Assembly (NCBI GenBank): GCA_019192545.1
Contig: JAHCMI010000055.1
Coordinates: 1 to 62,321, forward strand
Direction of reading: 5' to 3'
Source of the DNA: Rivularia sp. MS3
GTDB taxonomy: Bacteria > Cyanobacteriota > Cyanobacteriia > Cyanobacteriales > Nostocaceae
DNA: 62,321 nt
Shown here piece after piece: positions 39,205 through 56,865 of this stretch. A program made the position numbers and the translations under genes. The notes below the pieces were generated by a model, which saw nothing but the letters and a program-made list of their open reading frames with translations, had not been told where the DNA came from and did not search any database. Within the stretch, counting starts at the first letter, position 1, and every line of letters starts with the position of its first letter.

Positions 39205-40635
39205 ATGAATACTTCTTCGAGATATTGGAAAATTTGGCGTATTAACCCTGCTGCGGAAAGATTGGGGTATAAACAAGTTTTAGTTACGGCTGCTCGGGAG
39301 TTTGCAAATAAAAAATTTTCTGGAGTAGAAACGGGTGATAAACAAAACATTTTATTATCGTATTTTAACGGTGAAGAAAATGATACAGAAACGATAAAAA
39401 GAGCTATTGCTGGTCTTTGTCTTAGGTGCTATGTTTCCGAACCAATACTAAAAGAATGTAAGAAATTAGACTCTTTGTTTAGCGGTGAAAAGCAATTTAC
39501 TTATCGGGACTTATTACCTTTCGTTCTTAATGATGATGGACAAAAATTGGTTGTTTTAGATGGAGATGGTAAAACTCAATTAACGGTAGATGAAAATTCT
39601 CAAGTGAAAGTTTCACGATACAAATATTTTTCAGTTACCGTATTGCAAAGCTTTAATGCTGATTTACAGTCTCGCATGAGCTTGGACAATTGGGCATATT
39701 TACAAACCAAACAAAATTCGGAATTAAAGAAGTTTTTATCCGAGTTTGGTTTCCAACACTTAAGTGACTGGGCACTTTTAAATAGAATTAGAAAAAAACA
39801 GCTTCAATGTTTATCAGAGCAAGAGCGCTACATTGTTGAAGCTTTTCATGCAGTTTATCGCCGAGACAGACAGCAACAACAAAATAAAGGTAATAAAAGA
39901 TGTCCCGATCCTAATTCTGCTCAATTGCAGGAAATGTTAATTTATTTGCAGCAAAAGCAAATTTTGATTAATACTCCTGTCGAGTTGATGAAAAAACTCA
40001 AACAAATCGGTTTACAGTTGAGAAGATATGATATTTGGAGTTCAAGAGAATCTTTAGATATATACGATGCCGGAAGCGGTACTTATATAACCAGAAGGGA
40101 TTTACCCTATGCTTCTCTTGATGAGTCTGATTTAGAACAGCAAGAGTTTTTACAGTTTCTGCACCAGCACCTCCAGACAATTTTAACTCAAGCAATTGAG
40201 CAAGTTATAGAAGCTAATATTCAGAAATTACAAAAGAGTACAAGATATTCGCCTTTTGCCCACAAATACATTCAAGGGCTGTATTTTTATTACTCCGAGG
40301 CAATGTCATTAAAGGAAATAGCCCCTAAACTAGGAATGAGTAGTTGGGATCAAACCAGAAGAATTTTGAATCCCGGAGAACTTTTGTCCAAAGTGCGAGC
40401 TAAAACGGTAGAGCAGATGTTAGACAGTATTCTCAAAAAAGCCGCACAGAAGGGTTTAACTGAAATTCCGCCAGAAGCAAATTATCTGCTGGCGTTAACC
40501 CAACAAATCGAATCTTATCTTGATGAAGAAATATTTCAACAAGCTGCCGGAGAAATTAGAGCCGGAAAAAATCGTAAGTTGAGTGGTTTATATGCAAACC
40601 AACTTCTTGCCTATATTCAACCGTTACTAACATAA
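39205..40635 (+). CDS. Sigma-70-like regulatory protein of module A
   Basis: A 476-residue protein from ATG 39205; a TTG at 39169 would add 12 unsupported residues. It is basic and mostly helical. A helix-turn-helix of the sigma region 4 type is seen near its C-terminus: SEAMSLKEIAPKLGMSSWDQ (about residues 370-390), preceded by an amphipathic region with RYIVEAFHAVYRRDRQ. It is placed directly before a DUF1822 gene, as the clear sigma-like protein at 55333 is placed before its own DUF1822 gene. Overall similarity is weak, so a specialised sigma-like regulator is a tentative call. Confidence 0.6.
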   Translation: MNTSSRYWKIWRINPAAERLGYKQVLVTAAREFANKKFSGVETGDKQNILLSYFNGEENDTETIKRAIAGLCLRCYVSEPILKECKKLDSLFSGEKQFTYRDLLPFVLNDDGQKLVVLDGDGKTQLTVDENSQVKVSRYKYFSVTVLQSFNADLQSRMSLDNWAYLQTKQNSELKKFLSEFGFQHLSDWALLNRIRKKQLQCLSEQERYIVEAFHAVYRRDRQQQQNKGNKRCPDPNSAQLQEMLIYLQQKQILINTPVELMKKLKQIGLQLRRYDIWSSRESLDIYDAGSGTYITRRDLPYASLDESDLEQQEFLQFLHQHLQTILTQAIEQVIEANIQKLQKSTRYSPFAHKYIQGLYFYYSEAMSLKEIAPKLGMSSWDQTRRILNPGELLSKVRAKTVEQMLDSILKKAAQKGLTEIPPEANYLLALTQQIESYLDEEIFQQAAGEIRAGKNRKLSGLYANQLLAYIQPLLT

Positions 40636-41066
40636 TCTCGCGAGTGGAATTAGTTTCTAGTACTCAACCACATTAATTTTGATGGGTAATACCAATTTCA
40701 TTGCTAACAAGATTAATCCTCTTTATCCTCTTCCTCCGCGCTCTCTGCGCCTCTGCGGTATTTTTTAAAGAGGGTTTTATCATTTTCTCCCCCTGCCTCC
40801 CCTGCTTCCCCTGCTCCCCCTTAACTATCATATTTAATGAAAACGAGTACTAGTCTACCAAGTTAACAAAGCAGGGGTAATTGTTTTTACTACTTACTAC
40901 TTGCTACTTACTTCTTTCACCCAGAAATGTTAGCTTGTTCGAGTAATAGTACTTATTTTTTCAAAGAAAAAGTGGGTAGCAGTCAGTGGTTTCCTTGATA
41001 TTATTTAAACAACTGCATAAGTTATTTAAATTTACATCTAGTTACCTTTATACAAGAGGTAAAATC
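40636..41066. other. Spacer with palindromic repeat and pyrimidine-rich inserts
   Basis: No gene. Arms of a dispersed inverted repeat are near 40658-40686 (CATTAATTTTGATGGG) and 40830-40857 (TTTAATGAAAACGAGTACTAG), enclosing the common CTCTGCGCCTCTGCGGTA repeat and a run of CCCCTGC units. Ribosome site AGAGG for the next gene is at 41055-41059. Confidence 0.6.
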
Positions 41067-42149
41067 ATGTCGAACTCACCTTATTCTCAAGATTTAAGAT
41101 TTTTGTTACCAGAAACTATCTGGTTGGAAACCGAACATTTTTCCTTCGCGAAAGAAGCCTGTTCTTCGCAAACTTTCAACTCTAATGATTCTTGGCAAAC
41201 CTATTTGAATGCGTTAGCGGTAATTGCTTTTGAAGAATGGTTAAAAGAACGTTTACCGAATCAACCTGTTTCTAGAGATATAGATGTAAATAAAACTATT
41301 GGTAATCTTAAAGTTGATGAGTTCAAATTTTGCGCGATCGCTACCGAGCATTTATTAGATGAAATTGTGAGAATACCGCAAGCAGTCATCACAGAGCCGG
41401 AATTAGCAGCCCATTTTTATGTGTTGGTTGAGGTATTAGAAGAAGAAGAGCAAGTTGTTATTAAAGGTTTTGTAACTCACAAGCAGTTGAGTGAAAATAA
41501 GAGTAATTTACAGTTATTAACGGATAAAGGTTGCTACTATGTTCCGCTATCTTTATTTGATATGGAACCAAGCCATTTGTTGTTTTATCAGCGCTACATA
41601 CAAGCATCAGAATTTGCCTTACCCGTTGTACCGAGTCAAGCTAATCCAGTAAACGAAACTATAGCAGAACTTGTTAGTACAGCCACCACTAAATTAAGCC
41701 AATGGCTGCAAGGAGTAATTAATGAAGGTTGGCAAACAATTGATTCCCTTTCTCAACCGGAATTAAGCTTAGCTTTTAGTACTAGAAATATAGATACGAG
41801 TACTAAGAAAGCAAAAATAATTGATTTAGGAATAGATTTAGGTCATAAAAAAGTTGCGCTGTTAATTAATATATCTCCCGAACAACCTATAAACAATCAA
41901 GCTCGCGAATCCAGTCAAAATAAAATTAATGTTTTAGCGCAATTGTACCCAATGGATGGAGAAAAGTTTCTACCGCACAATATCAAATTACAGTTAATTT
42001 CTAAAGCAGGTAAAACTCTTCAAGAAGTAACTTCTAGACTTCAAGATAATTACATTCAGTTAAAACCTTTTAAAGGGGAAGCTGGAAAAAGGTTTAGTAT
42101 TCAGATAACCTTGGGAGATATAATTATCAAAGAAAATTTTGAACTATAA
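41067..42149 (+). CDS. DUF1822 family protein of module A
   Basis: A 360-residue protein from ATG 41067 (the upstream in-frame ATG-like starts add an unconserved 27 residues). It opens with LPETIWLETEHF and has the FVTHKQL segment of the DUF1822 family. The C-terminal third is an immunoglobulin-like or beta domain (KIIDLGIDLGHKKVALLINI, NYIQLKPFKGEAGKRFSIQI, ending IKENFEL) matching the end of the DUF1822 protein at 54064-55308 closely. DUF1822 proteins are specific to cyanobacteria, often near CHASE2 or CHAT genes, and of unknown function. It lies about 430 bp after the sigma-like gene. Confidence 0.83.
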   Translation: MSNSPYSQDLRFLLPETIWLETEHFSFAKEACSSQTFNSNDSWQTYLNALAVIAFEEWLKERLPNQPVSRDIDVNKTIGNLKVDEFKFCAIATEHLLDEIVRIPQAVITEPELAAHFYVLVEVLEEEEQVVIKGFVTHKQLSENKSNLQLLTDKGCYYVPLSLFDMEPSHLLFYQRYIQASEFALPVVPSQANPVNETIAELVSTATTKLSQWLQGVINEGWQTIDSLSQPELSLAFSTRNIDTSTKKAKIIDLGIDLGHKKVALLINISPEQPINNQARESSQNKINVLAQLYPMDGEKFLPHNIKLQLISKAGKTLQEVTSRLQDNYIQLKPFKGEAGKRFSIQITLGDIIIKENFEL

Positions 42150-42254
42150 GTAATTATGTTTGAAAATGAGGTTTTGATTGTAGCATCAACTGTATTTGAT
42201 GAAGTTAATAAAAAAGGCGCTATCTTATTTCTATAGTTACTACTATACATCTAC

Positions 42255-42381
42255 AGGAATGGCCGCAACTGGCATGTTTTTCTCGTAGGGTGCTGTGACA
42301 CTTTGACTAATTCTGAACGTAGTAATAACATGCAGGCTGTGTCACGCACCAACCGGCATTGTGACAATTGCGGCCATTCCT
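42255..42381 (+). repeat. MITE-like element, copy 1
   Basis: A 127-bp sequence with terminal inverted repeats AGGAATGGCCGCAA...TTGCGGCCATTCCT. It is the reverse complement of 61176-61301 with only scattered differences, and does not code for protein. It occupies most of the gap between the convergent DUF1822 and TPR-CHAT genes. Confidence 0.9.
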
Positions 42382-42389
42382 ATAAACAT

Positions 42390-45227
42390 TTAAAGCCAGT
42401 TTCCTATTAATACATAAGGTGCCCAAGTTAAAGGCAGTTCATCATTCTTCAAAAGATTAATTTGTGCTTGCTGTAAAGCTTTAGCTTTATTCAATTTATT
42501 TTGTTGCAACTGTTGATAAAATTGACTCATTAATAGCGCTGTAGATTCATCTTCTACTGCCCATAAAGTAGCTAAAGTACTTCTAGCACCGGCACGAACT
42601 GCAATTCCAGAAAGTCCTAAACTTGCTTTTTTATCTCCACTTGCAGTTTCACAAGCACTCAAAACTAATAACTCGATAGTGCGAGCATCTACGTTTGTAT
42701 TAACTTGAAACAGTTTATCAAAATCTTTAACTTTGAGCAGTTTGTTCCAAGTCAAAATATAGGTTTCTTCTAAGTTTGAACTAAAATTACCGTGGGTAGC
42801 AATATGAACTACCGTGTATTTAGCAGAATTAATTTGTTTTTCTAAGTTTTTTTCGGTAAAAGATTGATTTAAAAGTTTTTTGCTCCGAGGTATTTGTGAT
42901 TGAATTGTTTTTAATTCTACGAGTATGTTTTGCAAAGGGTTGAATTCCCGATTGCCAATTAGCCGCTTTTCGCTAACTCCAGCCATCAAAATATTTAATT
43001 CTGTGTTTTCTAATGGCTTTGGCTCTAGCATTTGTAAACCTGGAGTTAAAGTAATGGCATATTTTTCAATTAGATATTTTGCTTCTGTTTCCTGGGTTTG
43101 ATTGTCGTAAAGTACAGCCATCGGAATATTTCTTAAATTACCATCTAAAACAAATACTAATGTTTGTATATTTTTGGCTTGCAAGTCTGCTTCTAATGGT
43201 TGGATCGTCCATTTATATAATTGTGCGGATAGTTCTTTGACTTTGTTTCTTTGCTCTGGCTGTCTAAGGCTATTTTGTAATTTTTCGATTGTATTTTCAA
43301 GTACTTCTGCTTTAACAAACGTCGTGTAATGATTCAATTTATTTTGTAGTGGTAATTTTAAAATTATTTCCAGACGATTTTGTAAAATAATTGGATAAAT
43401 CACGGCTGCTGTGGTATCTTTTTTATCAACAACCGTATCAACAATCTCTGGCTTAGCCTGCAAGCAAACTTCCTGAAAATAATTTTCTATTTCCCTTAGC
43501 TGTAGGGCTTCAATGACATCCCGAGCTTTATTGATATTATTATTAATGATATTTGCATTCACACTATTGTCCGATTTAACCTGAGTAATCTGAGATTTTG
43601 AAGGTTGTAAAAGTAAATCAACTAGTTGTCTGTATACTGGTTCAACATTATCTCTAAAAGAAAACTGTATATCTGGCTTTAGTACGAGTAAATCACCGCG
43701 TAAATTGTTTAAATTATTAACTGCTTGCGAGTAATTTTCTATTGCTTGGGGGATGTTTTCTTGAAGTTTATGTATATATCCTAACTGCCATTGCCAAAGA
43801 TAAGCAATATCCTTTGCTTCTATTTTTAAAGCTAAATCAACTGCTTTCTGCGTCAGTTGTTGAGCATCCGCTAAATGATTAGTTTGTAAATATATGCTAC
43901 CTAGGGTGCCTATTCCATAAGCTTGCAGTCTTGTATTTTCTAAAGCTTCTGCTTGTTTAATTGCAGTCGCTAGAATTTTAGCTATATTTTCCCATGCCGG
44001 TGCATTCCCAGCACTAGCCTGTTTTAATAAAAATAAGTTTTCCCCTAGTTTAATTTTAGCTTTAACTGATGTCTCTGATACTGGCAATTGATTAATATTT
44101 GATTGTAATTGAAAGGCTAACTCACCGGCTCGTTGAAATTCTTTAAGCTCTATCAATAGACTAATTACATTTAATTGTGCTTTTGCTTGAATGATGGGTG
44201 ATGTTGATGCTGCTATAGTCTGCTCGTAAATGTTTACTGCTTGTTGATATAATTTTCTGGACTCTGACGATATCTGCTTACCGACATAAACTAAAGGTGC
44301 TGTCTTATTAAATAATGTTGTGTTTTGTAAAGGCGATCGCGACTGATTTGCTTTTGCAAATAGAGCATTACCGAGGCTAAGCAAAGTTTCAGCGATTTGA
44401 GGAGCAGATTTAATTTTGAGTGCGATGTCATAGCTTTGCTGTAAAGTTTTTAAGGAAGCGTCTATTTCGCCGAGGTATAGCTGAGCATCACCAAAGCTTC
44501 GCAATGCAGTTACTTTAAGAATCGAAGCTGGCTGTTGATGTAAATTCGCAAGCAAGTCTGTCAATATTTTTAAAGCTAGTTGATAACGCCCATCAGCTTG
44601 TAAAGCAATAGTTTGATTAATTAAGCTACGAATTTTTTCTTGTTGCAAGTTTTGCTGCTGGTAAATAGCAGCAGCCTGTTTCCAGTTTTCGACTGCTGAA
44701 GTGGGTTTTCCTAAAATTAACTGTAAATTAGCTTGAATATCTAAAATTTGAGCAAATATTTTTAATTTCTCTGCGTTATTTTCGTCAATTGATTTTATCT
44801 TTAATATTTCCCGGCTTTGGGAAATATATTTCAGTGCCATATCGTATTCTGCAAGCTGTTTATAAGCGCTGGCAATATTGCTCAGCGCAATAGAATGTTT
44901 AATCGAATTATTTTGTGTTTGAAAAATTACTGCTGCTTGCTTTAAAACAGATATAGCTTCAACATATTTTTCTTTGTCATACAGTTTTTTCGCCTCTTCT
45001 AATAAATCTTGCGGATTAAGATGATTTTTATAAATCTCTATAGGGTTATGTATATCCCCAGCATCAGCTTTAGAAAGTACAACTGGTATGAAATTTAATT
45101 CCCAAATTGCAGTAAAAATAAAGGCTAAAACAAATAAAAGTACTTTTCGCAGCAGTTTTTGATAAAATTTAGCAACCCACTGATATAACTTTGTTTTCCT
45201 TAAAGAATCATTTTTTAACAGTTGCAT
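42390..45227 (-). CDS. TPR-CHAT protease of module A
   Basis: A 945-residue protein with an N-terminal membrane anchor or signal (LLRKVLLFVLAFIFTAIWEL, about 25-45), TPR repeats through about residue 530, and a C-terminal CHAT domain (about 610-945). The catalytic dyad is seen as HIATHGNF (His812) and LSACETASGD (Cys859). It ends with the typical WAPYVLIGNWL, as does the related protein at 2297-5458 (WAPFILIGNGF). Its 3' end faces the DUF1822 gene across a MITE. Likely a regulated protease outside the cytoplasmic membrane, but no substrate can be inferred. Confidence 0.88.
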   Translation of the reverse strand: MQLLKNDSLRKTKLYQWVAKFYQKLLRKVLLFVLAFIFTAIWELNFIPVVLSKADAGDIHNPIEIYKNHLNPQDLLEEAKKLYDKEKYVEAISVLKQAAVIFQTQNNSIKHSIALSNIASAYKQLAEYDMALKYISQSREILKIKSIDENNAEKLKIFAQILDIQANLQLILGKPTSAVENWKQAAAIYQQQNLQQEKIRSLINQTIALQADGRYQLALKILTDLLANLHQQPASILKVTALRSFGDAQLYLGEIDASLKTLQQSYDIALKIKSAPQIAETLLSLGNALFAKANQSRSPLQNTTLFNKTAPLVYVGKQISSESRKLYQQAVNIYEQTIAASTSPIIQAKAQLNVISLLIELKEFQRAGELAFQLQSNINQLPVSETSVKAKIKLGENLFLLKQASAGNAPAWENIAKILATAIKQAEALENTRLQAYGIGTLGSIYLQTNHLADAQQLTQKAVDLALKIEAKDIAYLWQWQLGYIHKLQENIPQAIENYSQAVNNLNNLRGDLLVLKPDIQFSFRDNVEPVYRQLVDLLLQPSKSQITQVKSDNSVNANIINNNINKARDVIEALQLREIENYFQEVCLQAKPEIVDTVVDKKDTTAAVIYPIILQNRLEIILKLPLQNKLNHYTTFVKAEVLENTIEKLQNSLRQPEQRNKVKELSAQLYKWTIQPLEADLQAKNIQTLVFVLDGNLRNIPMAVLYDNQTQETEAKYLIEKYAITLTPGLQMLEPKPLENTELNILMAGVSEKRLIGNREFNPLQNILVELKTIQSQIPRSKKLLNQSFTEKNLEKQINSAKYTVVHIATHGNFSSNLEETYILTWNKLLKVKDFDKLFQVNTNVDARTIELLVLSACETASGDKKASLGLSGIAVRAGARSTLATLWAVEDESTALLMSQFYQQLQQNKLNKAKALQQAQINLLKNDELPLTWAPYVLIGNWL

Positions 45228-45852
45228 TCCTCTTGTTCCTATTACAAATCTTTAACTCCGGTAATGGACAATGGATAATTGTAAATAAAATATATTGATT
45301 GCATAAATCTTTGGTAAAGACAAAATTTTGTAAAGTAAACCGATGCTTCCATCCAATTATTTATATAAACATATTGATTTTAAATTAGTAATGTATCAGT
45401 CTTAGGTGCTTCTCGATAGCGAGTTTTACCGACAGTTTCTTCCGGATTAATACAGCATTAGATGATAAAAATTTTATGGTACGCATAAAACAACAAGCCC
45501 GGAGATATTCTTATTGTAAATATTTCATAATTTGCCTTTTTTTGATAGGGTACAAATTTACTGAATGCGGTTTTGTCGAGTATTAGACTCTTTTATTCAT
45601 ATGGAAGTAAGCTTAAAACAATTATGAAGTCTAATGTTTGTAACAATTATTTAAGTTTAAACTGCATAACTTGGCAAACATTTCACCTATAAAATAGAGA
45701 AGCAACTCTTGCATCAAATTAATTTATAATTTGACTGGTTTTTACCGTTAATTGTCAGATTACTGAATCTTTCCTGCCTTCCCAGCTGGAAATGCAATTC
45801 ATGCAGGGTGTAGCTCATCTCGCAGTGAATCACGATAAATATATAAATTTAA
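45228..45852. other. Noncoding spacer upstream of the TPR-CHAT and receiver genes
   Basis: A divergent intergenic region of about 620 bp that must hold promoters for both sides. I see no gene, RNA or conserved box. Confidence 0.45.
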
Positions 45853-46281
45853 ATGATAAAAATTTTATTAATTGAATCAGAATTATCCCAATTATTCGAT
45901 AAAAACAATTTTTTAGAATGCTTGGAAAATAACGGATACACCGTATTAGTAGCACATAATACCCCCGAGGGTATTCATAAAGCAAAATCCGAACTTCCCG
46001 ATTTAATCATCTGCAATATCGTTGAGATAGAACTTAATCATCATAATCCCCCCAAAGCTCTGTGTGAATTTTCGACTAAGGCAATAGTACCGTTAATTTT
46101 TGCGATTGATAAAATGACTCAGGCTAATATTCGTAAAGCAATGGAAATGGGGGCTGATGACTGTATTAGCAAATCCTGTACCCATAAAGAATTATTAAAC
46201 GCCATCGCAAGTCGTTTGGATAGACTCGTCTTTCTTCGACAGTGGTGCGCCGCGCAATTAGAGAAAAATTTACTCGATTAG
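45853..46281 (+). CDS. Degenerate response-regulator receiver domain (pseudo-receiver)
   Basis: A stand-alone 142-residue receiver fold (MIKILLIESELSQLF, then GADDCISKSCTHKELLNAI). The phospho-acceptor position, usually IICDI, reads IICNIVEIE, so Asp is replaced by Asn. The acidic pair near residue 9 is also reduced (IESE). The conserved Lys (CISKSCTH) is retained. It therefore probably cannot be phosphorylated in the usual way and would act by binding. It has no output domain. An alternative is a constitutive mimic of the phosphorylated form. Confidence 0.8.
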   Translation: MIKILLIESELSQLFDKNNFLECLENNGYTVLVAHNTPEGIHKAKSELPDLIICNIVEIELNHHNPPKALCEFSTKAIVPLIFAIDKMTQANIRKAMEMGADDCISKSCTHKELLNAIASRLDRLVFLRQWCAAQLEKNLLD

Positions 46282-46494
46282 CCACACAAAGCCTAAATGT
46301 AAATCTAGGTAAAAAAGTGTTAAGAAATCAGAGATTTTCTATCATTACTGCATAATTTAGAAAAAGTTTCCCAATACAATAAATAGTATAGAGCCTCTTA
46401 TAAATTAAGAGGTTTTAGTAAAGGTTCAATGAAACATATTGAACAAATTTGTCATGAAAATTATTGTTTGTGTTTTGTCATTCAAGGGTAATTG

Positions 46495-47304: not shown

Positions 47305-47351
47305 TCTTTTCCTATCCGTGAAGCTTGGTAATTGGTAATAAATGGTAAGCA

Positions 47352-48128
47352 TTAATTAATTTTTCCCACAATCGGCTGATTAGATAAATCTTGCAAACCC
47401 ATATTACTTAATAGCTGCATCCAGTCTTTCGCAAGGCTCTTATTTTGGAAATTTGATAAACGAAGTTTTGCTGACTGAGTTAAAGCTGAATACCAAATTC
47501 CATTTTCAGCATAGAAAGCAATCCGCTGACGCGACGATCTAAGTTGACTCAATTGCGTTTGCTGTTGCGGTTCTAATGCTATCCTTTGCACCCATCCACG
47601 CACGTAAATAGGTATTGATGAGTTATCGCCGTCGCAATACAGTTTGAAATACCACTGATAGCTCTTATTAGTTTTCAATGTATAAGTATTCCCGGAAGCA
47701 AGATTAATACTGACAATTCCTTTACCTTTCTCTACAGAAAATTCATTGCGATATACATTATTATGAGCTTCATCCTGCAAGACAAATTCTCCCTTATGTA
47801 TCCTGTTAGATTCATAAGGAATAAAAACCCAAAATGTCGGTTTTGCTTCGACGACTTTACCTACTTGATTCTCTGGGATTAAAGCAGTTAGTGGCATATC
47901 TGTTGCGGGACAATCATTACGGCTTCCTACTGCTCTTCTTCTGGTAGGTCTTCCTCTTCTATCACCCCTCGGTCGCTTTCTGTTAACTTTTACTGGTTTT
48001 TTAGGAGGATTTTTAGTAACTTGCCTTTGTGTATGTGCCTCTGCTGGCTGATGCAAGCTTGCAAAACCCAAAAGCATTAATAACAGAATAAAGCTAAATT
48101 TAATTTGATTTAATATTTTGCTTTTCAT
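47352..48128 (-). CDS. Secreted DUF928 family protein
   Basis: A 258-residue protein with a Sec signal (ILLLMLLGFASLHQPAEAH, about 14-32), an Arg/Pro-rich linker (KVNRKRPRGDRRGRPTRRR), and the DUF928 core: GSRNDCPA, LTALIPENQVG, PTFWVFIPYES, SYQWYFKLYCDGDNSS, VRGWVQRIAL. DUF928 proteins are cyanobacterial and often next to CHAT and CHASE2-type genes. Function unknown. The two Cys could form a disulfide. It is likely periplasmic or outer-membrane associated. Confidence 0.82.
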   Translation of the reverse strand: MKSKILNQIKFSFILLLMLLGFASLHQPAEAHTQRQVTKNPPKKPVKVNRKRPRGDRRGRPTRRRAVGSRNDCPATDMPLTALIPENQVGKVVEAKPTFWVFIPYESNRIHKGEFVLQDEAHNNVYRNEFSVEKGKGIVSINLASGNTYTLKTNKSYQWYFKLYCDGDNSSIPIYVRGWVQRIALEPQQQTQLSQLRSSRQRIAFYAENGIWYSALTQSAKLRLSNFQNKSLAKDWMQLLSNMGLQDLSNQPIVGKIN

Positions 48129-49138: not shown

Positions 49139-51445
49139 ATGAAGGTTCATCAGCATTGCTTTCATAAGCTAGCGGCAGCAACATTTGCAACCTTAGCATT
49201 CTACGTTAACTCAGCGAATGCTGAAATTATTCCCGATAAAACCTTACCGAATCATTCGAGCCTTACAACACAAAATAATATCAAAATTATTGAAGGTGGA
49301 ACCCAAGCTGGAATAAATTTATTCCACAGTTTTGAGCAGTTTTCTGTACCAGGCAATACTACGGCATATTTTAACAATATTCAAAATGTTCAAAATATTA
49401 TTACCCGCATTACGGGCAAATCTATTTCTAATATTAATGGCACAGTTCGCGCCAACGGTAGTGCAAATTTATTTTTAATTAATCCCAATGGAATTGTTTT
49501 TGGTGAAAATGCTGCTTTAGATATTGGTGGTTCGTTTTTAGCTACTACTGCAAGTAGCATTAACTTTGCCGACGGTACAAAATTTAGCGCCACACAATCC
49601 GAAACTGCGCCTATTTTAACTATAAACGTTCCTGCTGGTTTACAATTCGGCTCAACACCCGCACCTATCCGCAATCAATCTCAAGCATCTGTTAATGGTG
49701 CAACTAATTTTTTTGGCCAACCTATTGGTTTGCAAGTATCAACGGGTAAAACTTTAGCACTGATTGGGGGTGATTTGATTTTAGAAGGCGGTAATTTAAC
49801 CGCAGATTCAGGACGAATTGAATTAGGAAGCGTTGCTGGTAATAGTTTCGTCAATCTCAACTCAATTGATAAAGGTTGGTTTTTGGGATACGAAAATGTG
49901 ACAAATTTTCAAGATATTCAATTAATTCGAGGAAATACAAATGATTCTATCGTTGGATCGATAGTAAGCGTAAGTGGAAAAGATGGTGGTGGTAGTATTA
50001 GCGTACAAGGTAATTCTGTTGAGTTGATTGGTAATTTCGTGCGTTTAAGTACTGCAACGACAGACAACACAAATGCTGGAGACATAATAATTAACGCCAC
50101 AAAATTCGTCGTTGCCGACGGCGCACAGGTATTAGCTTTTACTTCTGGAAAAGGCGCGGCAGGAAATATAATTGTTAATGCTTCGGACTCTGTGGAGTTA
50201 ATTGGCACGTTTATTGATGAAAATGGTAACACTATAAATAGTGGATTAATAAATGCTACTGCTGGCGATGGAAATGGAGGAAACCTTACTATTAACACAA
50301 GCAGATTAGCTATTTATGATGGAGCAAGAGTCTCAGTACAAACTTCTTTTAAACCCGGAAGTGACAATTCACAATTTATTTTAGCAACAGGAAAGGCCGG
50401 TAATTTAACTGTAAATGCTTCTGAGCTTGTAGAATTGGCTGGTAAATCAATAACAGATAGAAGCAGTACCCTTGTATCCAGCACGTCAAATTCAGCAGAT
50501 GCAGGAAAAATCGCGATCGCAACAAAACAATTAATTGTTAGAGATAAAGCTGAAATTAGCGTTAGTAGCCAATTCCCGGAATTACCATTAACTTTTACAA
50601 TTGTTGGCGATAAAACTAATTTAGGAAACGCAGGACAACTTCAGATTGCTGCCGATTCTATACTGTTAGATAATCAAGGTAAGCTAATTTCTGAAACTGA
50701 ATCAGCAAGCGGAGGAAATATTAATCTCCAGTTAAAAGATGTACTATTACTGCGTCGCAACAGTCAAATTTCGACAAATGCCGGAAAAGCTGGACTCGAC
50801 GGCGACGGCGGTAATATAAATATTGATATTCCTAATGGTTTTATAGTTGCCCTACCCGAAGAAAACAGCGATATTACCGCCAATGCTTTTACTGGTGCAG
50901 GTGGTAGAGTCGATATCAATGCCACCGGTATTTTCGGCATTCAACCTCGCAGTCGAGATGAATTAATAGAAATTTTAGCTACCAATCAAGCAAACGAATT
51001 AAATCCCCAAAAGCTTTTAACCAGCGATATCACCGCAATTTCTGTACAAAATCCAAATTTAAACGGTGAATTAAATATTATTGCTCAAGATGTACAGCCG
51101 ACAAGAGAAGTAGTACAGACACCAGAAATACCAGTAGATACAAAAGTCTCTCAGGTTTGCAGATTCCGTAGAGGCAATCAAAGCGAATTTGTTTTTAGCA
51201 GACGCGGTGGTTTACCTCCTTTACCCAGTGAAGTATTAAAAAGTGATTCTGCTTTGAGTGTTGGTTGGATTGAAGGAGAGACAACGGGAGATGAGAAGAT
51301 GGGGAGAAGGGGAGATGGAGAGAAGGCAAAACAAAATCCCATTGTTGAAGCTACTGCTTGGGTTAAACATAAAAATGGTGATATCTACTTTGTGGCTGGG
51401 AAAGGAAATGTCAAAGGCAATAATTTTCCAGGAGTTGGTTGTTAA
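49139..51445 (+). CDS. TpsA-like exoprotein with filamentous-hemagglutinin secretion domain
   Basis: A 768-residue protein with a signal peptide (cleavage near SANAEII, about residue 28) and the TPS secretion domain (about 30-170) marked by INLFHSFEQFSVPGN and NLFLINPNGIVFGENAAL. The remainder is a predicted beta-helix with repeats (LVELAGKS, GNLTVNASE). A C-terminal CRFRRGN and LPPLPSEVL segment is typical of cyanobacterial members. Residues near 717-735 (EGETTGDEKMGRRGDGEK) come from a purine-rich repeat inserted in the coding frame. The expected transporter is at 57223-58980. It would be exported to the surface or medium. Confidence 0.9.
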   Translation: MKVHQHCFHKLAAATFATLAFYVNSANAEIIPDKTLPNHSSLTTQNNIKIIEGGTQAGINLFHSFEQFSVPGNTTAYFNNIQNVQNIITRITGKSISNINGTVRANGSANLFLINPNGIVFGENAALDIGGSFLATTASSINFADGTKFSATQSETAPILTINVPAGLQFGSTPAPIRNQSQASVNGATNFFGQPIGLQVSTGKTLALIGGDLILEGGNLTADSGRIELGSVAGNSFVNLNSIDKGWFLGYENVTNFQDIQLIRGNTNDSIVGSIVSVSGKDGGGSISVQGNSVELIGNFVRLSTATTDNTNAGDIIINATKFVVADGAQVLAFTSGKGAAGNIIVNASDSVELIGTFIDENGNTINSGLINATAGDGNGGNLTINTSRLAIYDGARVSVQTSFKPGSDNSQFILATGKAGNLTVNASELVELAGKSITDRSSTLVSSTSNSADAGKIAIATKQLIVRDKAEISVSSQFPELPLTFTIVGDKTNLGNAGQLQIAADSILLDNQGKLISETESASGGNINLQLKDVLLLRRNSQISTNAGKAGLDGDGGNINIDIPNGFIVALPEENSDITANAFTGAGGRVDINATGIFGIQPRSRDELIEILATNQANELNPQKLLTSDITAISVQNPNLNGELNIIAQDVQPTREVVQTPEIPVDTKVSQVCRFRRGNQSEFVFSRRGGLPPLPSEVLKSDSALSVGWIEGETTGDEKMGRRGDGEKAKQNPIVEATAWVKHKNGDIYFVAGKGNVKGNNFPGVGC

Positions 51446-51673: not shown

Positions 51674-54067
51674 TCAACTTCTTAATCTGTAAGTTGCAAC
51701 GCTAGCGCTACCGCCTATCAAAGCAAAGACGGAGGGAATGAAGGGTATCCAAGCACCTTGGATTAATATGCAGTAGCAAAGTAAATATAATACAGCTTGA
51801 GTTAAACCTAAAGTGAATGCTAATTGTAATGATGATTTACAGCGCCAAGCTAGCATTCCTCCAACTATTGCCCAACAGTAAATCCAAACTGCTTCTGCCC
51901 ATTTTGACCATACCCATAATAACGGTCTGTTATCAAGGGCTGCGCTAATAATTTGACTGACCATATGTGCGTGTATAATTACCCCCGGTGTCTTGTTGTG
52001 CGGGGATTTTAAGCTATAAGGCGTTGACCAATAATTATTAAAGCTTTCGGCGGTGGTACCAATTATGACAATTTTATCTTTGACTAAATCGGGTGTAAGT
52101 TTATCTGCAAGCACTTCTTGCAGGGTAATTCGCCGTGCTATTTCGGGTGTGGAGCGCCAATTAAGCATTATTTGATAACCGAGACTATCAATATTGCTAT
52201 AGCTGCCGCTGTTACTTTCTAAATGTGGCAGTAAAAGTTTATTGTTTAAATTATTCTTTGATTGAGCTACTTCTGGATCTAATTCGAGGTAAATGTTTTC
52301 TTGGGCTAAGTAAGCTGCTGCAAGTTGGAAGCTAAAGGATTTATCGGTATTGCAAGGTGGAGCGGGAGCCATTGCTAGTAAGTGACGGCGTAACATAGCA
52401 TCCGAATCTTCTACAATATCTGTAAACCCCAAGCTTTCTGAAGAAAGTTCTGGAGGTGGCGGTACGCCAGGATTTTCTTCTCCTTCGCTGACTTGACAAA
52501 CTCCAATAAATTTAGAACTCGTTTGCATCCATTTACTTAAATTTTCATATTGGGATTTAATCGGGCTGTCTCGATAAATATTTAAACCTATAATCCGGGG
52601 GTTGTATTTCTCTAATTTGTTTATCAATTGTGCTAATACAGTATCTGAAATTGAGGCAGCACCTCTTTCCTCTGGATTCTGTGCTTGTACATCTACCTCA
52701 GTAATTTCTACAATCAACATGCGATTATCTTTACCTTCATAGGGACGCGCTCGCATCATGCTATCAAAGGCTGTTAGTTCCCAGGTTTCTAGTAAGCCGA
52801 GACTTCGCACTCCCATCATAACTGTAGCGATCGCTAATCCAGTGGCGAAGATTGCGGGTATAATTTGACGGGTGTTTGGTGGGGAAACAAAATTGAGTTG
52901 ATTGGTGTGTTGATTGGTATGTTGATTGGTGGTTGGAATCGAATTTGACCATACTAAAGGCGCTTCGGTAGGATTTTGACAAATTACCGGCAACCAACTA
53001 GCACAGGGAAATTCGGCTTCTAAACCTTGCAGTTTTTCCCCGGCTTCACGTACTGCTAAGTTAAATGATTTGGATTCGGAAAAGGATGATAAGAAAAATT
53101 TTAAAAATCTTTGAGCGACTAAATCCGGTACGGGTTCGCGCATGACAATTATTTGCGGTATCTGCAATGAAGCTAATTGCGTGGCTAATCCCAAACCATC
53201 ACAGGAATTGAAAATTGCTAGGTGTAATCCCCGCGATATCGCCGCTCTCAAACCATTTTTTAATTGCTCGATTGTTAAACTATCTCGGGGGTTAAGATAA
53301 ATTTGCCCGGTTTCTCCATTTTCTTGCGTAGAACTATGTCCGGCAAAAAATAGTATATCCCATCCTTTTTCATCCCAAAGCATCAAATCTAATTCTTGAC
53401 GCTGGGCTTCTATCAAAAAAACTGTTTCTGCGCCAGGTAAATTTTCTAAAATGATTTTATCTTCTTGAGTATCAATATTTTCGCTACTACCTAAAATTGC
53501 TAAAATTCTGATTCGATCTCGTTTAGGTTTGCGGATACTGTCTAATTTCTCAAAATCCGGTTTGCTCAAACATAAAACAGCATTTGGATAATCATCAAAA
53601 AAGTCCCATAAGTTCCAAGGTAATCGTCGCACTTCATCTAAATCCGTTTGGATAATTACCTGTATTTCTTCGCTAGAGTTTAATTTGGTACGTAATTTCT
53701 GCTCTAAATCCACGAAAGTCGGATTATTAAGCCAAATGTTGATTCTATTTTTCAAATCATCGCATAGATTGTTGAATTCAACCGATGAAATATTAGTTAC
53801 ATCTTCCGACTCGATTTCAATTTCCGCATCGGAATCAAATTCTTGTCGCCAAATTAAATCGGGAATTAAAGAATCGTAAAGCAAATTGTAGAGAATTTGC
53901 CAGCGACGATAAATTTGAGTAAGTTCGGGTGCTGCTGGCAAACTGCCGGTAAACTGAACGCAGAAAAGATTAACTTCTGCTTCGCGCTCGTATACTTGAG
54001 CGATCGCGCCGGAAAATCCCTCCTTTAAGCTACCTTTGCCCAGATTCAACACTACTAACTTGCTCAT
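51674..54067 (-). CDS. CHAT-CHASE2 membrane protein of module B
   Basis: A 797-residue protein. The N-terminal part is a CHAT domain (about 130-380) with the dyad FFAGHSST (His244) and FNSCDGLG (Cys289). A membrane segment (about 400-420) is followed by a CHASE2 sensor domain on the outside (about 425-720: LLETWELTAFDSMMRARP, IIGLNIYRDSPI, DKIVIIGTTAESFNNYWSTP) and three C-terminal membrane helices. CHASE2 is usually joined to kinases or cyclases, so here the intracellular output is a protease-like domain. ATG 54065-54067 overlaps the DUF1822 stop by 4 bp. It is the third gene of an apparent operon. Confidence 0.9.
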   Translation of the reverse strand: MSKLVVLNLGKGSLKEGFSGAIAQVYEREAEVNLFCVQFTGSLPAAPELTQIYRRWQILYNLLYDSLIPDLIWRQEFDSDAEIEIESEDVTNISSVEFNNLCDDLKNRINIWLNNPTFVDLEQKLRTKLNSSEEIQVIIQTDLDEVRRLPWNLWDFFDDYPNAVLCLSKPDFEKLDSIRKPKRDRIRILAILGSSENIDTQEDKIILENLPGAETVFLIEAQRQELDLMLWDEKGWDILFFAGHSSTQENGETGQIYLNPRDSLTIEQLKNGLRAAISRGLHLAIFNSCDGLGLATQLASLQIPQIIVMREPVPDLVAQRFLKFFLSSFSESKSFNLAVREAGEKLQGLEAEFPCASWLPVICQNPTEAPLVWSNSIPTTNQHTNQHTNQLNFVSPPNTRQIIPAIFATGLAIATVMMGVRSLGLLETWELTAFDSMMRARPYEGKDNRMLIVEITEVDVQAQNPEERGAASISDTVLAQLINKLEKYNPRIIGLNIYRDSPIKSQYENLSKWMQTSSKFIGVCQVSEGEENPGVPPPPELSSESLGFTDIVEDSDAMLRRHLLAMAPAPPCNTDKSFSFQLAAAYLAQENIYLELDPEVAQSKNNLNNKLLLPHLESNSGSYSNIDSLGYQIMLNWRSTPEIARRITLQEVLADKLTPDLVKDKIVIIGTTAESFNNYWSTPYSLKSPHNKTPGVIIHAHMVSQIISAALDNRPLLWVWSKWAEAVWIYCWAIVGGMLAWRCKSSLQLAFTLGLTQAVLYLLCYCILIQGAWIPFIPSVFALIGGSASVATYRLRS

Positions 54068-55308
54068 ATCTTCGAGGGAGAAAATCCTTCGAGTATAAAG
54101 TTCTCTTTTATCTTGACATCTTTACGGGCAACTTGGATACTGAAGTATTTTCCCAAGGGTAATTTAAATCTTTTTAACTGAATGTAGTTGTCGTAGCTTC
54201 TTGACTTTACTGACTGTAAGGTAGCTCCCGATTCAGAAAGCAAAGTTAATTGCACGCTATCTGGTAAATAAACTTCTCCAGAAGCAGGATAAAGTTGTAC
54301 TCGGATACCGACTTTGTTATCAATTTGCGGCGATAAGCCAATCAATAAAGCCACAGAATTACTTTCTAGCTGCATTCCTAAATCTATAAGTTTGGCTCCT
54401 TTGACGCAAACTTCATTTAAAACCGAATCGCTTCTGAATTGGAAGGCTGTTGTATTTGTCAAGTTAAGCAAATCATCTACAGAGCAGAAACCGCCACTAA
54501 AAACATTGTGAAACCACGAACTCAACTCGAGTACAATTTCTGATGAGTTTTCCATGAGATGAACCTTTAAATGATTGATTCTGTGGTTATACAAAGCTTC
54601 TCTATATTTCTCGGATGCTAAGATAGCTCCCCATTGTGCAAACCTTAGATGCAAGCGGGGAGAATAAAAGCTTATCTGGCTTAACTGCTCTATCAATTGT
54701 TTGGCTTCAGACTCTAATAAAGTTGGTAAAAATTGAACCTGGGGCTTTTTGAGGGTACAGAGCTTCTGGGCAACCCACATAATATTAATATCGGCAATTA
54801 AATCATCGCAGTTTATACAATAAGTTCTATCTATAGAATCATATTGTGCTTTTTGGCGAAGTTGTTCGTGGCTAATAAAACCCGATACTTTTAACCAACT
54901 TTGTTCGAGATTTAACTGTACTGCTAAATAATAATTGGCAGCCCAATTAGGAATATCAACCCATTCTTGAGGGATGCGAAACTCATCGCAATCACTTTCC
55001 TCGGTTGGCACTAACACCAATCGAGCTTGAGTAAAGTTTAAATCAATGCCATTTACAAACTGCCATCGTTTATCTATATCAGAAGATGGTGCGGGCATCG
55101 AGAATTTTTCGAGTAAATCTGGTTCTTCTTGCAACCATTTGAGGAAAACGCTTAGGCATAAGCGATTTATAAAAGCTCTATGACTGACAACATCGCTTTG
55201 ATAATTATTAGTTGCAGTTTGCTTTAAGGCTGCTTCTTTTTCTAGAGATGAAAATTCGATCCATAAATTATTCGGATGAATTTCTATTAAAGCGTCAAAT
55301 TTCAACAT
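54064..55308 (-). CDS. DUF1822 family protein of module B
   Basis: A 414-residue protein with HPNNLWIEFSSLEKEAA at the N-terminus and the FISHEQLRQKA segment. Its C-terminal domain matches module A closely (KLIDLGMQLESNSVALLIGL, NYIQLKRFKLPLGKYFSIQV, KENFILEG). It overlaps the following CHAT-CHASE2 gene by 4 bp and lies 24 bp after the sigma-like gene, so all three should be one transcript with coupled translation. The unknown DUF1822 function must be linked to both partners, given the repeated arrangement. Confidence 0.85.
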   Translation of the reverse strand: MLKFDALIEIHPNNLWIEFSSLEKEAALKQTATNNYQSDVVSHRAFINRLCLSVFLKWLQEEPDLLEKFSMPAPSSDIDKRWQFVNGIDLNFTQARLVLVPTEESDCDEFRIPQEWVDIPNWAANYYLAVQLNLEQSWLKVSGFISHEQLRQKAQYDSIDRTYCINCDDLIADINIMWVAQKLCTLKKPQVQFLPTLLESEAKQLIEQLSQISFYSPRLHLRFAQWGAILASEKYREALYNHRINHLKVHLMENSSEIVLELSSWFHNVFSGGFCSVDDLLNLTNTTAFQFRSDSVLNEVCVKGAKLIDLGMQLESNSVALLIGLSPQIDNKVGIRVQLYPASGEVYLPDSVQLTLLSESGATLQSVKSRSYDNYIQLKRFKLPLGKYFSIQVARKDVKIKENFILEGFSPSKI

Positions 55309-55332
55309 TTTAAAGTACCATTGCCTTGAAAA

Positions 55333-56865
55333 TTATCTTTGTTTTGACTGTATCCATTCATTTACGATGTTAGCTATCTTATAATTAACTACAGACAGAG
55401 AATCTTTTTTTAAACACATAGTAGTTTCTATATGCTTTTTGAATTTTTCTAATAATTGAGAATTTACTGGTTGGGAATCGTTATTTACCCCTGATTCATC
55501 TGCTTGTAATTTAACTAGCAAGCTTCTTTTGTAATTGAAGCTAATCAATATGTTTTGCCGTTCCTCATCGCTATATGCTTCCCAAATATCATTTAGTGCA
55601 GATAAAAACATTTCTTGACAGTATTGCTGCAAGCATTTATCTAAAGCTGATTTAATTCTTTCGATATCTTTTTCATCATTCAGAGAGATTTCTGGATTAG
55701 TTTTATTCCATTGAAAAGCAAACTCCTCTAATATTTTTCTGCCGTATTTTTTTAATTGACGAGCTACTTGATATTGCTTTTGCAACTCGGGATATTTATA
55801 TTTTACTAAATTTGCTATTTCAGTTTGAGTTAAGTTTAATCCCTGCCATAAATTAAATAGTGTTTGACATTGTTCTGGCATATGTTTAAATAAATTGTTA
55901 AGAATAATTTCTATTTGCTGACATTCTTCTTTGTTTATCATTACATCCCATACAGAAGCCGTAGATTCGGCAATAGCGCAGTAATTTTCCTCAAAATACA
56001 AATATTGCTTATGACGATAATTTTTCGCCGCCTTTATACAAGTTGAAAGCATTTCTAAAATTTCGATATCTGTTACCAGGGGATTAAACAGATGAAGTTG
56101 ATTGCATCGTTGGTTGTAATAATTAGCAATTGCGAGCAATTGTGGTTGGGAAGGGCTTCGGGTGCGATTATTTAAATTATTAGCTGTGATTTGGAAAATT
56201 TCACAAAAACACTGCCAAGCTAAACGATAAGATACAATTTTTTGGACTGAAAAACTTTGAGCCTGCAACGCTTCGGTTAACTCCCGAGCGTTTAAATCCT
56301 TCAATAAACCGTAACTAGAAAATCTTGTTCTCCTCGCTTCTAAATCTTGTCGATAAATTTGATTGCGAATAAATCTTTTGAAAGCAGTTATGGCATATGC
56401 TTCTATATTTATTTGATGTCGTTCAAAGTTAAAATTCTTAAAAAACTTACTGGGCGTGCTTGCCGCGATGTTAGCTATTTGAAAATATTCTTCTAAGGAA
56501 TATTTATGTTTGATATATTTAAATTCATTGTATATATCTCTCGCAGCTTTAAAACAGGCTTCTTGTAGATATGCCGAAAAATGTTTCTTGGCTGTGGACA
56601 AACAAGGCTGAGATTTAATTTTAACTAAATTTTGATTGTCGGTAGAAGATTGAACTAATAACACCTTCAAAAAATGTTGCGCCCAAAAACTTTCCTTAGC
56701 TTCTGGATCTGCCTTTACTTTTGATTGTATATTTTTCTTTAATTCTGCATCAATCTTCCAATGCAATCTAATTTGATGATTATCTTCTGTAAAACAGATA
56801 AAGCTAGAAAATTTATCTACTACATTTTTACGTTTTTTTTCAAGCATATGTTTTTCCAGAAACAT
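55333..56865 (-). CDS. Sigma-70-like protein of module B
   Basis: A 510-residue protein (start 56865; Met at 56847 also possible). The middle has a sigma region 2-like segment (EAYAITAFKRFIRNQIYRQD, about 150-170) and the C-terminal half a region 4-like helix-turn-helix (LTQTEIANLVKYKYPELQKQ, about 335-355). Such large divergent sigma-like proteins are found in cyanobacteria. It is the first gene of an operon with DUF1822 and CHAT-CHASE2, so it could be a sigma or anti-sigma controlled factor released by the protease (inference). Confidence 0.72.
   Translation of the reverse strand: MFLEKHMLEKKRKNVVDKFSSFICFTEDNHQIRLHWKIDAELKKNIQSKVKADPEAKESFWAQHFLKVLLVQSSTDNQNLVKIKSQPCLSTAKKHFSAYLQEACFKAARDIYNEFKYIKHKYSLEEYFQIANIAASTPSKFFKNFNFERHQINIEAYAITAFKRFIRNQIYRQDLEARRTRFSSYGLLKDLNARELTEALQAQSFSVQKIVSYRLAWQCFCEIFQITANNLNNRTRSPSQPQLLAIANYYNQRCNQLHLFNPLVTDIEILEMLSTCIKAAKNYRHKQYLYFEENYCAIAESTASVWDVMINKEECQQIEIILNNLFKHMPEQCQTLFNLWQGLNLTQTEIANLVKYKYPELQKQYQVARQLKKYGRKILEEFAFQWNKTNPEISLNDEKDIERIKSALDKCLQQYCQEMFLSALNDIWEAYSDEERQNILISFNYKRSLLVKLQADESGVNNDSQPVNSQLLEKFKKHIETTMCLKKDSLSVVNYKIANIVNEWIQSKQR

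What the first reader, a model, noticed from the sequence alone, without database searches (positions are those of the whole stretch)
39205..56865. Duplicated module: sigma-like protein, DUF1822 protein and CHAT protease
Twice in the cargo a sigma-70-like gene is followed directly by a DUF1822 gene and associated with a CHAT protein: 39205/41067 near the TPR-CHAT at 42390, and 55333/54064/51674 as one tight operon (24-bp gap, 4-bp overlap). The DUF1822 C-terminal domains are clearly homologous. The arrangement suggests a signalling chain in which an extracytoplasmic sensor (CHASE2) controls a CHAT protease, which acts on or with DUF1822 and a sigma-like factor. I know of no described function for this set.
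Basis: partly seen in the sequence, partly recalled or inferred. Interest (0 to 1): 0.8.

Follow-up and report, generated by a model that had tools for sequence, protein, structure and literature searches.

The report
Caspase-like protease-controlled sigma factor switch
Two gene sets in this cyanobacterial DNA look like members of a large family of switches in which a caspase-like protease, often fitted with a sensor, frees a gene-activating sigma factor from a protein (DUF1822) that probably holds it back.

Summary
The genes are as described, but the modules are not copies of each other: the DUF1822 proteins share 30% identity and the sigma proteins do not align. They belong to a large cyanobacterial family: 21 DUF1822 genes here. 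Of 113 sampled DUF1822 ORFs, 103 have a sigma-profile gene within 450 bp upstream and 77 a caspase-fold protease within 720 bp downstream, same strand. The neighbourhood is in print (Kaur 2021, EACC2 systems), with DUF1822 called a TPR protein. Added here: (1) in two genomes an anti-sigma-like domain is fused to the DUF1822 C-terminal domain, between a canonical ECF sigma gene and a CHAT gene; (2) sigma class and DUF1822 clade are strictly paired while the protease type is swapped; (3) sigma divergence tracks the DUF1822 N-domain; (4) both window sigma genes carry the same bipartite promoter-like site, also upstream of some DUF1822 and protease genes in relatives. Best reading: DUF1822 is an anti-sigma adaptor whose cleavage releases an autoregulated sigma factor. 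Inhibition and cleavage are inferred. Structure predictions split: a short-class pair suggests docking, the window's own pair does not.

The parts
39124..39158 (+). bipartite promoter-like site TGCATAA-N16-YCCAYAWAYATA, 81 bp before ATG 39205
   Evidence: footprint in orthologues; 0 mismatches; rank 2 of 124,574 window positions with the PWM of the other sigma clade
39205..40635 (+). divergent long-class sigma-like gene (sigB39; ORF can start at 39169)
   Evidence: homologues at E 1e-10 or better in 102 of 217 family genomes
41014..41048 (+). weaker copy of the promoter-like site, 19 bp before ATG 41067
   Evidence: rank 5 in window with the PWM of the sigB39 clade alone; only 5.3 with the pooled PWM; alignment
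41067..42149 (+). DUF1822 gene of module 1
   Evidence: PF08852 E 5.5e-64
42390..45227 (-). TPR-CHAT protein with N-terminal hydrophobic segment (signal-like); convergent with module 1
   Evidence: CHAT E 3.8e-59; hydropathy; homologue is the third gene of the operon in L205-L207
45594..45628 (-). promoter-like site upstream of the TPR-CHAT gene (3 mismatches)
45663..45697 (+). promoter-like site between the TPR-CHAT gene and the divergent response-regulator ORF 45853-46281
51674..54067 (-). EACC2-like/CHAT-CHASE2 protein; His and Cys of the dyad present; hydrophobic segments about 401-423 and 749-785
54064..55308 (-). DUF1822 gene of module 2 (predicted alpha/beta N-domain, helical part, beta-sandwich C-domain)
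   Evidence: PF08852 E 2.6e-81; AF2
55333..56865 (-). long-class sigma-like gene (sigA55); the sigma model of 165 positions is spread over 278 residues, so an insert is likely
   Evidence: TIGR02937 E 1.8e-9
56979..57013 (-). bipartite promoter-like site upstream of sigA55, same pattern as 39124-39158

Best explanation
Each module is a proteolysis-controlled sigma switch. The DUF1822 protein is a soluble anti-sigma adaptor: its N-terminal domain holds the cognate sigma-like factor and its C-terminal beta-sandwich domain meets the protease. The third gene encodes a caspase-fold protease carrying the input: CHAT on the inner side of the membrane with a CHASE2 domain outside (51674-54067), or in relatives other EACC2-CHAT proteins, TPR-CHAT, or C14 caspase. 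When the sensor fires, the protease cleaves (or strips) DUF1822, the sigma factor is freed, and it transcribes its own module from the TGCATAA-N16-CCATAWACATA-type promoter, giving a positive loop. Shown by computation: recurrence, strict pairing, protease swapping, anti-sigma::DUF1822C fusions, shared upstream sites, conserved catalytic residues. Inferred: sigma binding and inhibition by DUF1822, cleavage of DUF1822, topology, and that these sigma factors use this site.
For: (1) Sigma-profile gene upstream of 103 of 113 DUF1822 ORFs; L027 adds one by Pfam. (2) Caspase-fold protease downstream, same strand, within 720 bp in 77 of 113: EACC2-CHAT 68, C14 7, TPR-CHAT 2; Pfam confirms the C14 of all 7 and the CHAT of both TPR-CHAT. 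(3) Two genomes have canonical ECF sigma > anti-sigma-like domain fused to the DUF1822 C-domain > EACC2-CHAT: L027 (NF052375 7.4e-11, PRK13920 2.4e-6; PF08852 positions 215-370, 9e-17) and L297, 74% identical (NF052375 4.6e-9, PRK13920 1.4e-6; PF08852 227-369, 5.8e-16). (4) On the DUF1822 tree sigma class changes once (shuffles mean 34.8, min 29; n=115), protease type 6 times (shuffles mean 7.8, min 6; n=73). (5) Partial distance correlation: sigma follows the DUF1822 N-domain (0.75 against 0.42 for the C-domain, long class, n=57; 0.52 against 0.10, short class, n=43); CHAT follows the C-domain in the short class (0.54 against 0.29, n=31). (6) The PWM of either sigma clade ranks the other clade's site 2nd of 124,574 positions; sites of score 13 or more upstream of DUF1822 4 of 19 and protease 4 of 26 genes, against 0.05 and 0.10 expected. 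(7) Catalytic His in 0.99 of 74 rows, Cys in all 73 rows with a residue there. (8) Short-class sigma-DUF1822 read-through model: pTM 0.72. (9) Precedent: the CHAT protease Csx29 cleaves the sigma inhibitor Csx30 (PMC10028731, passages).
Against: The window's own sigma-DUF1822 pair gave pTM 0.55, no sign of a fixed interface. Neither Pfam nor NCBIfam finds an anti-sigma domain in the window's DUF1822 proteins. In the two fusions the anti-sigma models score below their curated cut-offs (42.5 and 36.6 against 100 bits; only the N-domain matches). Foldseek: no match with E under 0.001, and the 50 rows shown hold no sigma-binding anti-sigma domain (one sensor domain of the anti-sigma RsgI4, E 0.031, rank 32) and no sigma factor. 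36 of 113 DUF1822 ORFs have no protease downstream on the same strand within 720 bp, the window's module 1 among them. In the long class, the window's class, CHAT does not follow the C-domain (0.29 against 0.57 for N, wide intervals), and in the 26 long triples the sigma N-against-C difference has an interval that includes zero. sigB39 matches no sigma model. The full promoter pattern is confined to the two clades it was found in; in the wider long class TGCATA occurs in 15 of 55 upstream regions (4.4 expected) but also in 9 of 55 antisense. Training sites were picked with a joint pattern, so the leave-one-clade-out test is not fully independent, and several loci are close relatives. 28 of 113 DUF1822 proteins have a hydrophobic stretch.
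Confidence: 0.5

Rival explanations
1. DUF1822 is a scaffold or activator, not an inhibitor: it holds sigma factor and protease together, and the protease cleaves the sigma protein (a pro-sigma with its insert) or a third target.
For: Long-class sigma proteins are long (median 433 aa) and sigA55 appears to carry an insert within the stretch matched by the sigma model. The order sigma > DUF1822 > protease fits any three-part complex. Many sigma-DUF1822 pairs have no protease next door.
Against: In L027 and L297 the DUF1822 slot carries a domain of a known sigma-inhibitor type. Short-class sigma proteins are mostly near ECF size (median 229 aa, range 210-374), with little extra length to cleave.
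Confidence: 0.2
2. As Kaur et al. 2021 propose: a stimulus-sensing system in which the EACC2-caspase protein activates by autoproteolysis with its variable C-terminus as sensor; the sigma factor is a coupled transcriptional output and DUF1822 an accessory adaptor without inhibitor role.
For: Published neighbourhood analysis (PMC8195603, passages). Lengths of the downstream proteins vary widely. A one-mismatch copy of the site lies upstream of an EAD1-domain gene in this genome.
Against: It does not explain strict sigma/DUF1822 pairing while proteases swap, nor sigma-DUF1822 pairs without such a protease, nor the anti-sigma fusions. The predicted fold shows no TPR array and Pfam finds no TPR in either window DUF1822 protein.
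Confidence: 0.22
3. The set is a hitch-hiking cargo of nif-interruption elements and the genes have no joint function.
For: The window's modules lie inside what looks like a nifK-interrupting element, and two relatives carry the module beside a truncated nifE-like gene.
Against: The arrangement recurs in 37 sampled genomes, the 36 others all outside this genome's family, with catalytic residues kept.
Confidence: 0.03

Closest known systems
EACC2-caspase / ECF sigma / DUF1822 neighbourhoods (Kaur et al. 2021, eLife, PMC8195603)
   Same: Same gene set: caspase-fold protein with variable C-terminus including CHASE2, ECF sigma, DUF1822 (passages).
   Different: They call DUF1822 a TPR protein; in the passages seen it has no inhibitor role. 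The anti-sigma fusions, long sigma class, protease swapping, promoter-like site and module 1 without an adjacent same-strand EACC2 gene are added here; their supplements and figures were not seen.
Type III-E CRISPR CASP: Csx29 (TPR-CHAT) - Csx30 - CASP-sigma (Strecker et al. 2022, PMC10028731)
   Same: A CHAT protease cleaves a protein that binds and inhibits an ECF-like sigma factor (passages).
   Different: Input there is target RNA through Cas7-11; here a CHASE2 or other domain is fused to the protease. The DUF1822 profile has no match above chance to any PDB chain. Long-class sigma proteins match the CASP-sigma model (14 of 37, best 4.7e-8) but the general sigma-70 model matches more of them and better (23 of 37, best 6e-38).
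Regulated proteolysis of anti-sigma factors (RseA/DegS, RsiW; RskA family)
   Same: Protease-released sigma factor; the L027 fusion carries an anti-sigma-like N-domain, with a weak RskA_N match.
   Different: Those use membrane-associated site-1/site-2 proteases (passages; otherwise recalled); here the protease is caspase-like and encoded next door, and the window's DUF1822 proteins show no transmembrane segment.

Membership tests
DUF1822 (PF08852) | score over the curated cut-off of 25 bits | tested here: met
   217 and 274 bits
sigma-70 family (TIGR02937) | single-sequence score over the curated cut-off of 42.9 bits | tested here: not met
   sigA55 37.4 bits; sigB39 no match
sigma-70 family, as a group | profile of the group matches solved sigma factors | tested here: met
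   long class (37 rows): sigma factor chain 1l0o 1.5e-10, FliA, RpoS; short class (26 rows): SigK 3.8e-4, RpoE 1.9e-3
EACC2-caspase systems (Kaur 2021) | caspase-fold domain with variable C-terminus next to ECF sigma and DUF1822 | tested here: met
   module 2; catalytic H and C present
EACC2-caspase systems (Kaur 2021) | EACC2 alpha+beta domain at the N-terminus | not testable with these tools
   their alignment is not held; the label EACC2 for the N-terminal part is inferred from position and gene set
TPR protein (label given to DUF1822 in Kaur 2021) | tetratricopeptide repeats | tested here: not met
   no TPR match in either DUF1822 protein; predicted alpha/beta + helical + beta-sandwich layout
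classical anti-sigma factors | recognisable anti-sigma domain | tested here: not met
   window DUF1822 proteins: none in Pfam or NCBIfam; only the L027-type fusions match, below the curated cut-offs
classical anti-sigma factors | binds and inhibits the cognate sigma factor | not testable with these tools
   needs a bench test; AF2 gives pTM 0.72 for a short-class pair and 0.55 for the window's pair
Type III-E CASP | Cas7-11/gRAMP and CRISPR array at the locus | not tested
   no search for Cas7-11 or a CRISPR array was run
Type III-E CASP | Csx30 homologue | tested here: inconclusive
   DUF1822 profile against PDB chains: only 7 chance-level matches, none named Csx30; it was not checked that Csx30 is in that copy

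The most novel reading that the evidence does not exclude
DUF1822 defines a new class of soluble, protease-addressed anti-sigma adaptors. Cyanobacteria run many parallel, insulated caspase-to-sigma channels (21 DUF1822 genes in this genome) in which N-domain/sigma pairs give specificity, the C-domain is a common docking part for interchangeable caspase-fold proteases (EACC2-CHAT, TPR-CHAT, C14), and each channel is autoregulated from its own promoter; some channels travel in nif-interruption elements.
Probability: 0.4. Interest if true: 0.82.

Novelty: new variant of a known kind. Interest (0 to 1): 0.66.

Why it matters
Caspase-like proteins are abundant in this genome (69 CHAT and 13 C14 matches), and the substrates of most such cyanobacterial proteins are unknown (recalled). 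If DUF1822 is their substrate and a sigma inhibitor, each cluster gains a ready biochemical test: a protease, its substrate, its transcriptional output and a predicted promoter. It would also widen the CHAT-to-sigma logic known from one CRISPR type into a common signalling design, and offer a modular sensor-to-transcription part for engineering.

Tried and rejected
Recent duplication of one module into the other: rejected. TPR fold for DUF1822: rejected. Sequence homology of DUF1822 to solved proteins: nothing above chance. Structural homology: only weak Ig/Fn3-like hits for the beta-sandwich, E 6e-3 or worse, 50 of 778 and 50 of 1303 rows seen. Interface in the window's own pair: not seen. 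A divergent lipoprotein as a fourth module part: found in only 4 loci. A promoter common to all long-class sigma genes: only a half-site trend, antisense also raised. Own-genome-only co-divergence of short-class sigma and DUF1822: not significant, n=6, 149 of 2000 shuffles reach it. Recombination repeat at the nifK junction: no shared word longer than 12 bases in the stretches compared, same strand only.

Rows dropped or kept: two DUF1822 rows seen twice in overlapping regions (L168 at 311, L128 at 8686) were dropped. Kept although fragments: L026, and both halves of the split gene in L142, so the 113 ORFs are 112 genes. Ten of 113 lack a sigma-profile hit: L124, L020, L159 (contig end), L174, L173, L161, L027 (true ECF sigma by Pfam), L026 (fragment), L169, L142 second half. 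Searches used only proteins over stated length limits. C14 genes cut by contig ends were missed, so the third-gene changes there are a lower bound. One of the 12 PWM training sites (L195 at 14390) lies before the divergent lipoprotein gene, so one of the two 'other' hits is a training site.
Full report
WHAT IS THERE. All named ORFs exist. Module 2 is a tight - strand operon: sigma-like gene 56865-55333, 24-bp gap, DUF1822 55308-54064, 4-bp overlap, CHAT-CHASE2 54067-51674. Module 1 is + strand: sigma-like 39205-40635, a 431-bp gap, DUF1822 41067-42149, then a TPR-CHAT gene on the opposite strand (45227-42390). Pfam confirms DUF1822, CHAT and CHASE2. sigA55 reaches 37.4 bits against the sigma-70 model (cut-off 42.9) and sigB39 matches none, but sigB39 was drawn into an iterative profile seeded with sigA55 and three relatives, and an alignment of 37 such proteins matches SigF, FliA and RpoS chains; 23 of the 37 match the sigma-70 model on their own at E 0.01 or better.

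NOT A DUPLICATION. The two DUF1822 proteins are 30% identical over 408 columns and the two sigma proteins do not align (blastp E 0.99). In a FastTree tree of 124 DUF1822 proteins, 36 and 53 of the 123 others are nearer to each than its window partner. They are two members of a large family.

A FAMILY. The genome has 22 PF08852 matches, two of them pieces of one frame, so 21 genes, fragments included. I took all 91 non-own places over the cut-off, split matches merged, from a sample of 60 genomes of the class (37 with such a match, own included; regions), 19 own neighbourhoods and the window. Profiles seeded on a few members and run over 2021 ORFs without using position give 113 DUF1822 ORFs; 103 have a sigma-profile gene within 450 bp upstream on the same strand (58 long class, 45 short class), and 103 of the 105 sigma hits are that neighbour. 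An EACC2-CHAT gene lies downstream on the same strand within 720 bp in 68; a C14 caspase in 7 and a TPR-CHAT in 2 take that place; 36 have none there. Pfam confirms all 7 C14 and both TPR-CHAT. In this genome, 18 of 21 have the sigma-profile neighbour and 14 of 21 a protease there. The short class matches solved SigK and RpoE weakly (3.8e-4, 1.9e-3), and 12 of 26 members match the sigma-70 model at E 0.01 or better.

PRIOR WORK. Kaur et al. 2021 (PMC8195603; [quoted passage not shown] They propose autopeptidase activation and a possible sigma output. So the gene set is not new. Of two papers in the library with the word DUF1822, the other lists it in a table of variants (passage). One paper holds both 'CHAT domain' and 'anti-sigma' (Strecker 2022), none holds 'CHASE2' with 'CHAT domain', none holds CHAT, CHASE2, sigma factor and cyanobacteria together, and the one hit for metacaspase, sigma factor, anti-sigma and cyanobacteria is a Streptomyces paper (listing only). 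The library is open-licence papers only.

THE KEY CLUE. In own-genome locus L027 the middle protein (238 aa) starts with an anti-sigma-like domain (NF052375 7.4e-11, PRK13920 2.4e-6, RskA_N only 0.23) and ends with the DUF1822 C-domain (PF08852 215-370, 9e-17). Its upstream gene is a canonical ECF sigma (PF04542 1e-15, PF08281 3.7e-15) and its downstream gene an EACC2-CHAT. A 74%-identical protein lies in a genome of another family with the same gene order (L297: gaps 23 and 6 bp; NF052375 4.6e-9, PF08852 227-369 5.8e-16; sigma PF04542 1.4e-16), with a remnant in L298. The anti-sigma models cover only the N-domain and stay under their curated cut-offs. So the DUF1822 slot can be filled by what looks like a sigma inhibitor that keeps the DUF1822 C-domain.

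PAIRING AND SWAPPING. On the DUF1822 tree, the class of the upstream sigma changes once (shuffle mean 34.8, min 29, n=115), while the downstream protease type changes 6 times (shuffle mean 7.8, min 6, n=73; protease within 1500 bp). Among 19 loci with a close sigB39 homologue (58-83% identical in the table), the third gene is TPR-CHAT on the same strand in 4 (L205, L206, L207; L191 after a longer gap), EACC2-CHAT in 7 (L199, L201, L202; separated or shortened copies in L190, L192, L193, L200), two C14 genes in L194, a broken EACC2-CHAT in L195, the window's convergent TPR-CHAT in L189 (80% identical to the window's), and none seen in L196, L197, L198, L203 and L204, of which L196 ends at the contig end. 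Distances of cognate sigma and DUF1822 correlate (r 0.88, n=57 long; 0.76, n=43 short; 0 of 2000 shuffles), also within this genome for the long class (0.88, n=11), not for the short class (0.40, n=6, 149 of 2000). Partial correlations split the protein: sigma follows the N-domain (long 0.75 against 0.42, n=57; short 0.52 against 0.10, n=43, and 0.66 against 0.07, n=31; bootstrap intervals of these differences exclude zero; in the 26 long triples 0.76 against 0.56, interval includes zero). CHAT follows the C-domain in the short class (0.54 against 0.29, n=31, interval -0.02 to 0.68) but not in the long class (0.29 against 0.57, n=26, wide intervals). Co-inheritance as an operon explains part of this; the split between domains is what points to contacts. 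The N-domain has more columns than the C-domain, which favours it in such a test.

PROMOTER-LIKE SITE. Aligning upstream regions of orthologues showed one conserved block in each sigma clade: TGCATAA, 16 bases, then CCATAAACATA or CCACATACATA. With TGCATAA-N16-YCCAYAWAYATA the genome has 10 matches at 2 mismatches or fewer (reversed control 0); the only two exact ones precede the two window sigma genes. That pattern was made from these sites, so I also trained on one clade only: either PWM ranks the other module's site 2nd of 124,574 window positions, and the next of the sigB39 PWM are 45594-45628 (upstream of TPR-CHAT), 45663-45697 and 41014-41048 (before the module-1 DUF1822). The test is not fully independent, because the training sites were collected with a joint pattern. 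The last site is weak: 5.3 with the pooled PWM. In 20 loci, sites scoring 13 or more lie upstream of 11 of 22 sigma genes (training sites included), 4 of 19 DUF1822, 4 of 26 protease and 2 of 102 other genes (expected from 40 column-permuted PWMs 0.02, 0.05, 0.10 and 0.10). One of the two others is a predicted lipoprotein divergent from a sigma gene, and its site was in the training set. Some of these loci are close relatives, so the counts are not independent events. This fits autoregulation of the module; that these sigma factors read the site is inferred.

STRUCTURE. sigA55 + DUF1822 folded as one read-through chain: pLDDT 82.9, pTM 0.55, about what one of the two proteins alone would give, so no evidence of contact. 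A short-class pair (L112, natural 38-residue in-frame spacer): pLDDT 86.7, pTM 0.72. By my estimate a placed DUF1822 alone (324 of 581 residues) would give about 0.55, so part of sigma seems docked. No coordinates or PAE were available to check this, and no swapped-partner control was run. DUF1822 is an alpha/beta N-domain, a short helical part and a beta-sandwich; Foldseek finds only weak matches, mostly Ig/Fn3-like, in the 50 rows shown.

MECHANISM. I commit to: DUF1822 = anti-sigma adaptor, protease = releasing enzyme with the sensor, sigma = autoregulated output (confidence 0.5). Parts, as my judgement: sigma and DUF1822 act together, about 0.9; DUF1822 inhibits, about 0.65; protease acts on DUF1822, about 0.55. 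It works like CASP (Csx29-Csx30-CASP-sigma; PMC10028731 passages) but is not shown to be related to it.

CONTEXT. nifK appears split: a C-terminal piece at 35423-35644 (-), with one stop inside the matched stretch, next to a serine recombinase ORF (35637-37229), and a longer N-terminal piece on contig C109:25233-26315 (the gene name rests on position beside nifE and on recall of NifK). The modules therefore probably lie in a nifK-interrupting element; nifK elements with xisF-like recombinases are known (PMC4874684, passages). Two relatives carry the module-1 type about 170 bp from a truncated nitrogenase-type gene that resembles nifE (L190, L193).

Noticed in passing
window 35423-35644 (-) and 35637-37229 (+); C109:25233-26315: nifK looks split by an element with a serine recombinase; the window's cargo from about 35.6 kb to its end would be inside it.
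   Followed up: partly
L190:3824-4612 and L193:3659-4516: In two relatives the module-1 type sigma gene starts about 170 bp from a truncated nifE-like gene, suggesting that this module travels with different nif elements.
   Followed up: partly
window 47352-48128, 49139-51445, 57223-58980: DUF928, a TPS-domain exoprotein and its TpsB transporter sit among the modules; DUF928 recurs beside module-1 relatives in L189, L191, L205 and L207, a TPS protein in L199 and L207.
   Followed up: partly
L195:14481-15371, L199:3298-4146, L207:11619-12482, L011:2889-3839: A predicted lipoprotein family is transcribed divergently from long-class sigma genes; L195 has the promoter-like site 91 bp upstream.
   Followed up: partly
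window 60304-60945 (-): Three-repeat secreted-looking protein (by eye) whose start lies 83 bp after the 5' end of a site scoring 11.9 with the promoter PWM; possible further target.
   Followed up: no
G000:C8:14335-14369 (L286): One-mismatch copy of the site about 290 bp before a gene with an EAD1 domain.
   Followed up: partly
window 67-2196 and 2162-5458: A C14 caspase gene overlapping a second TPR-CHAT-like gene at the left end of the window.
   Followed up: no
L161:778-2109: A DUF1822 protein with a different, HTH-looking N-terminus (judged by eye), with a MASE1-cyclase gene 681 bp downstream and no protease seen.
   Followed up: no
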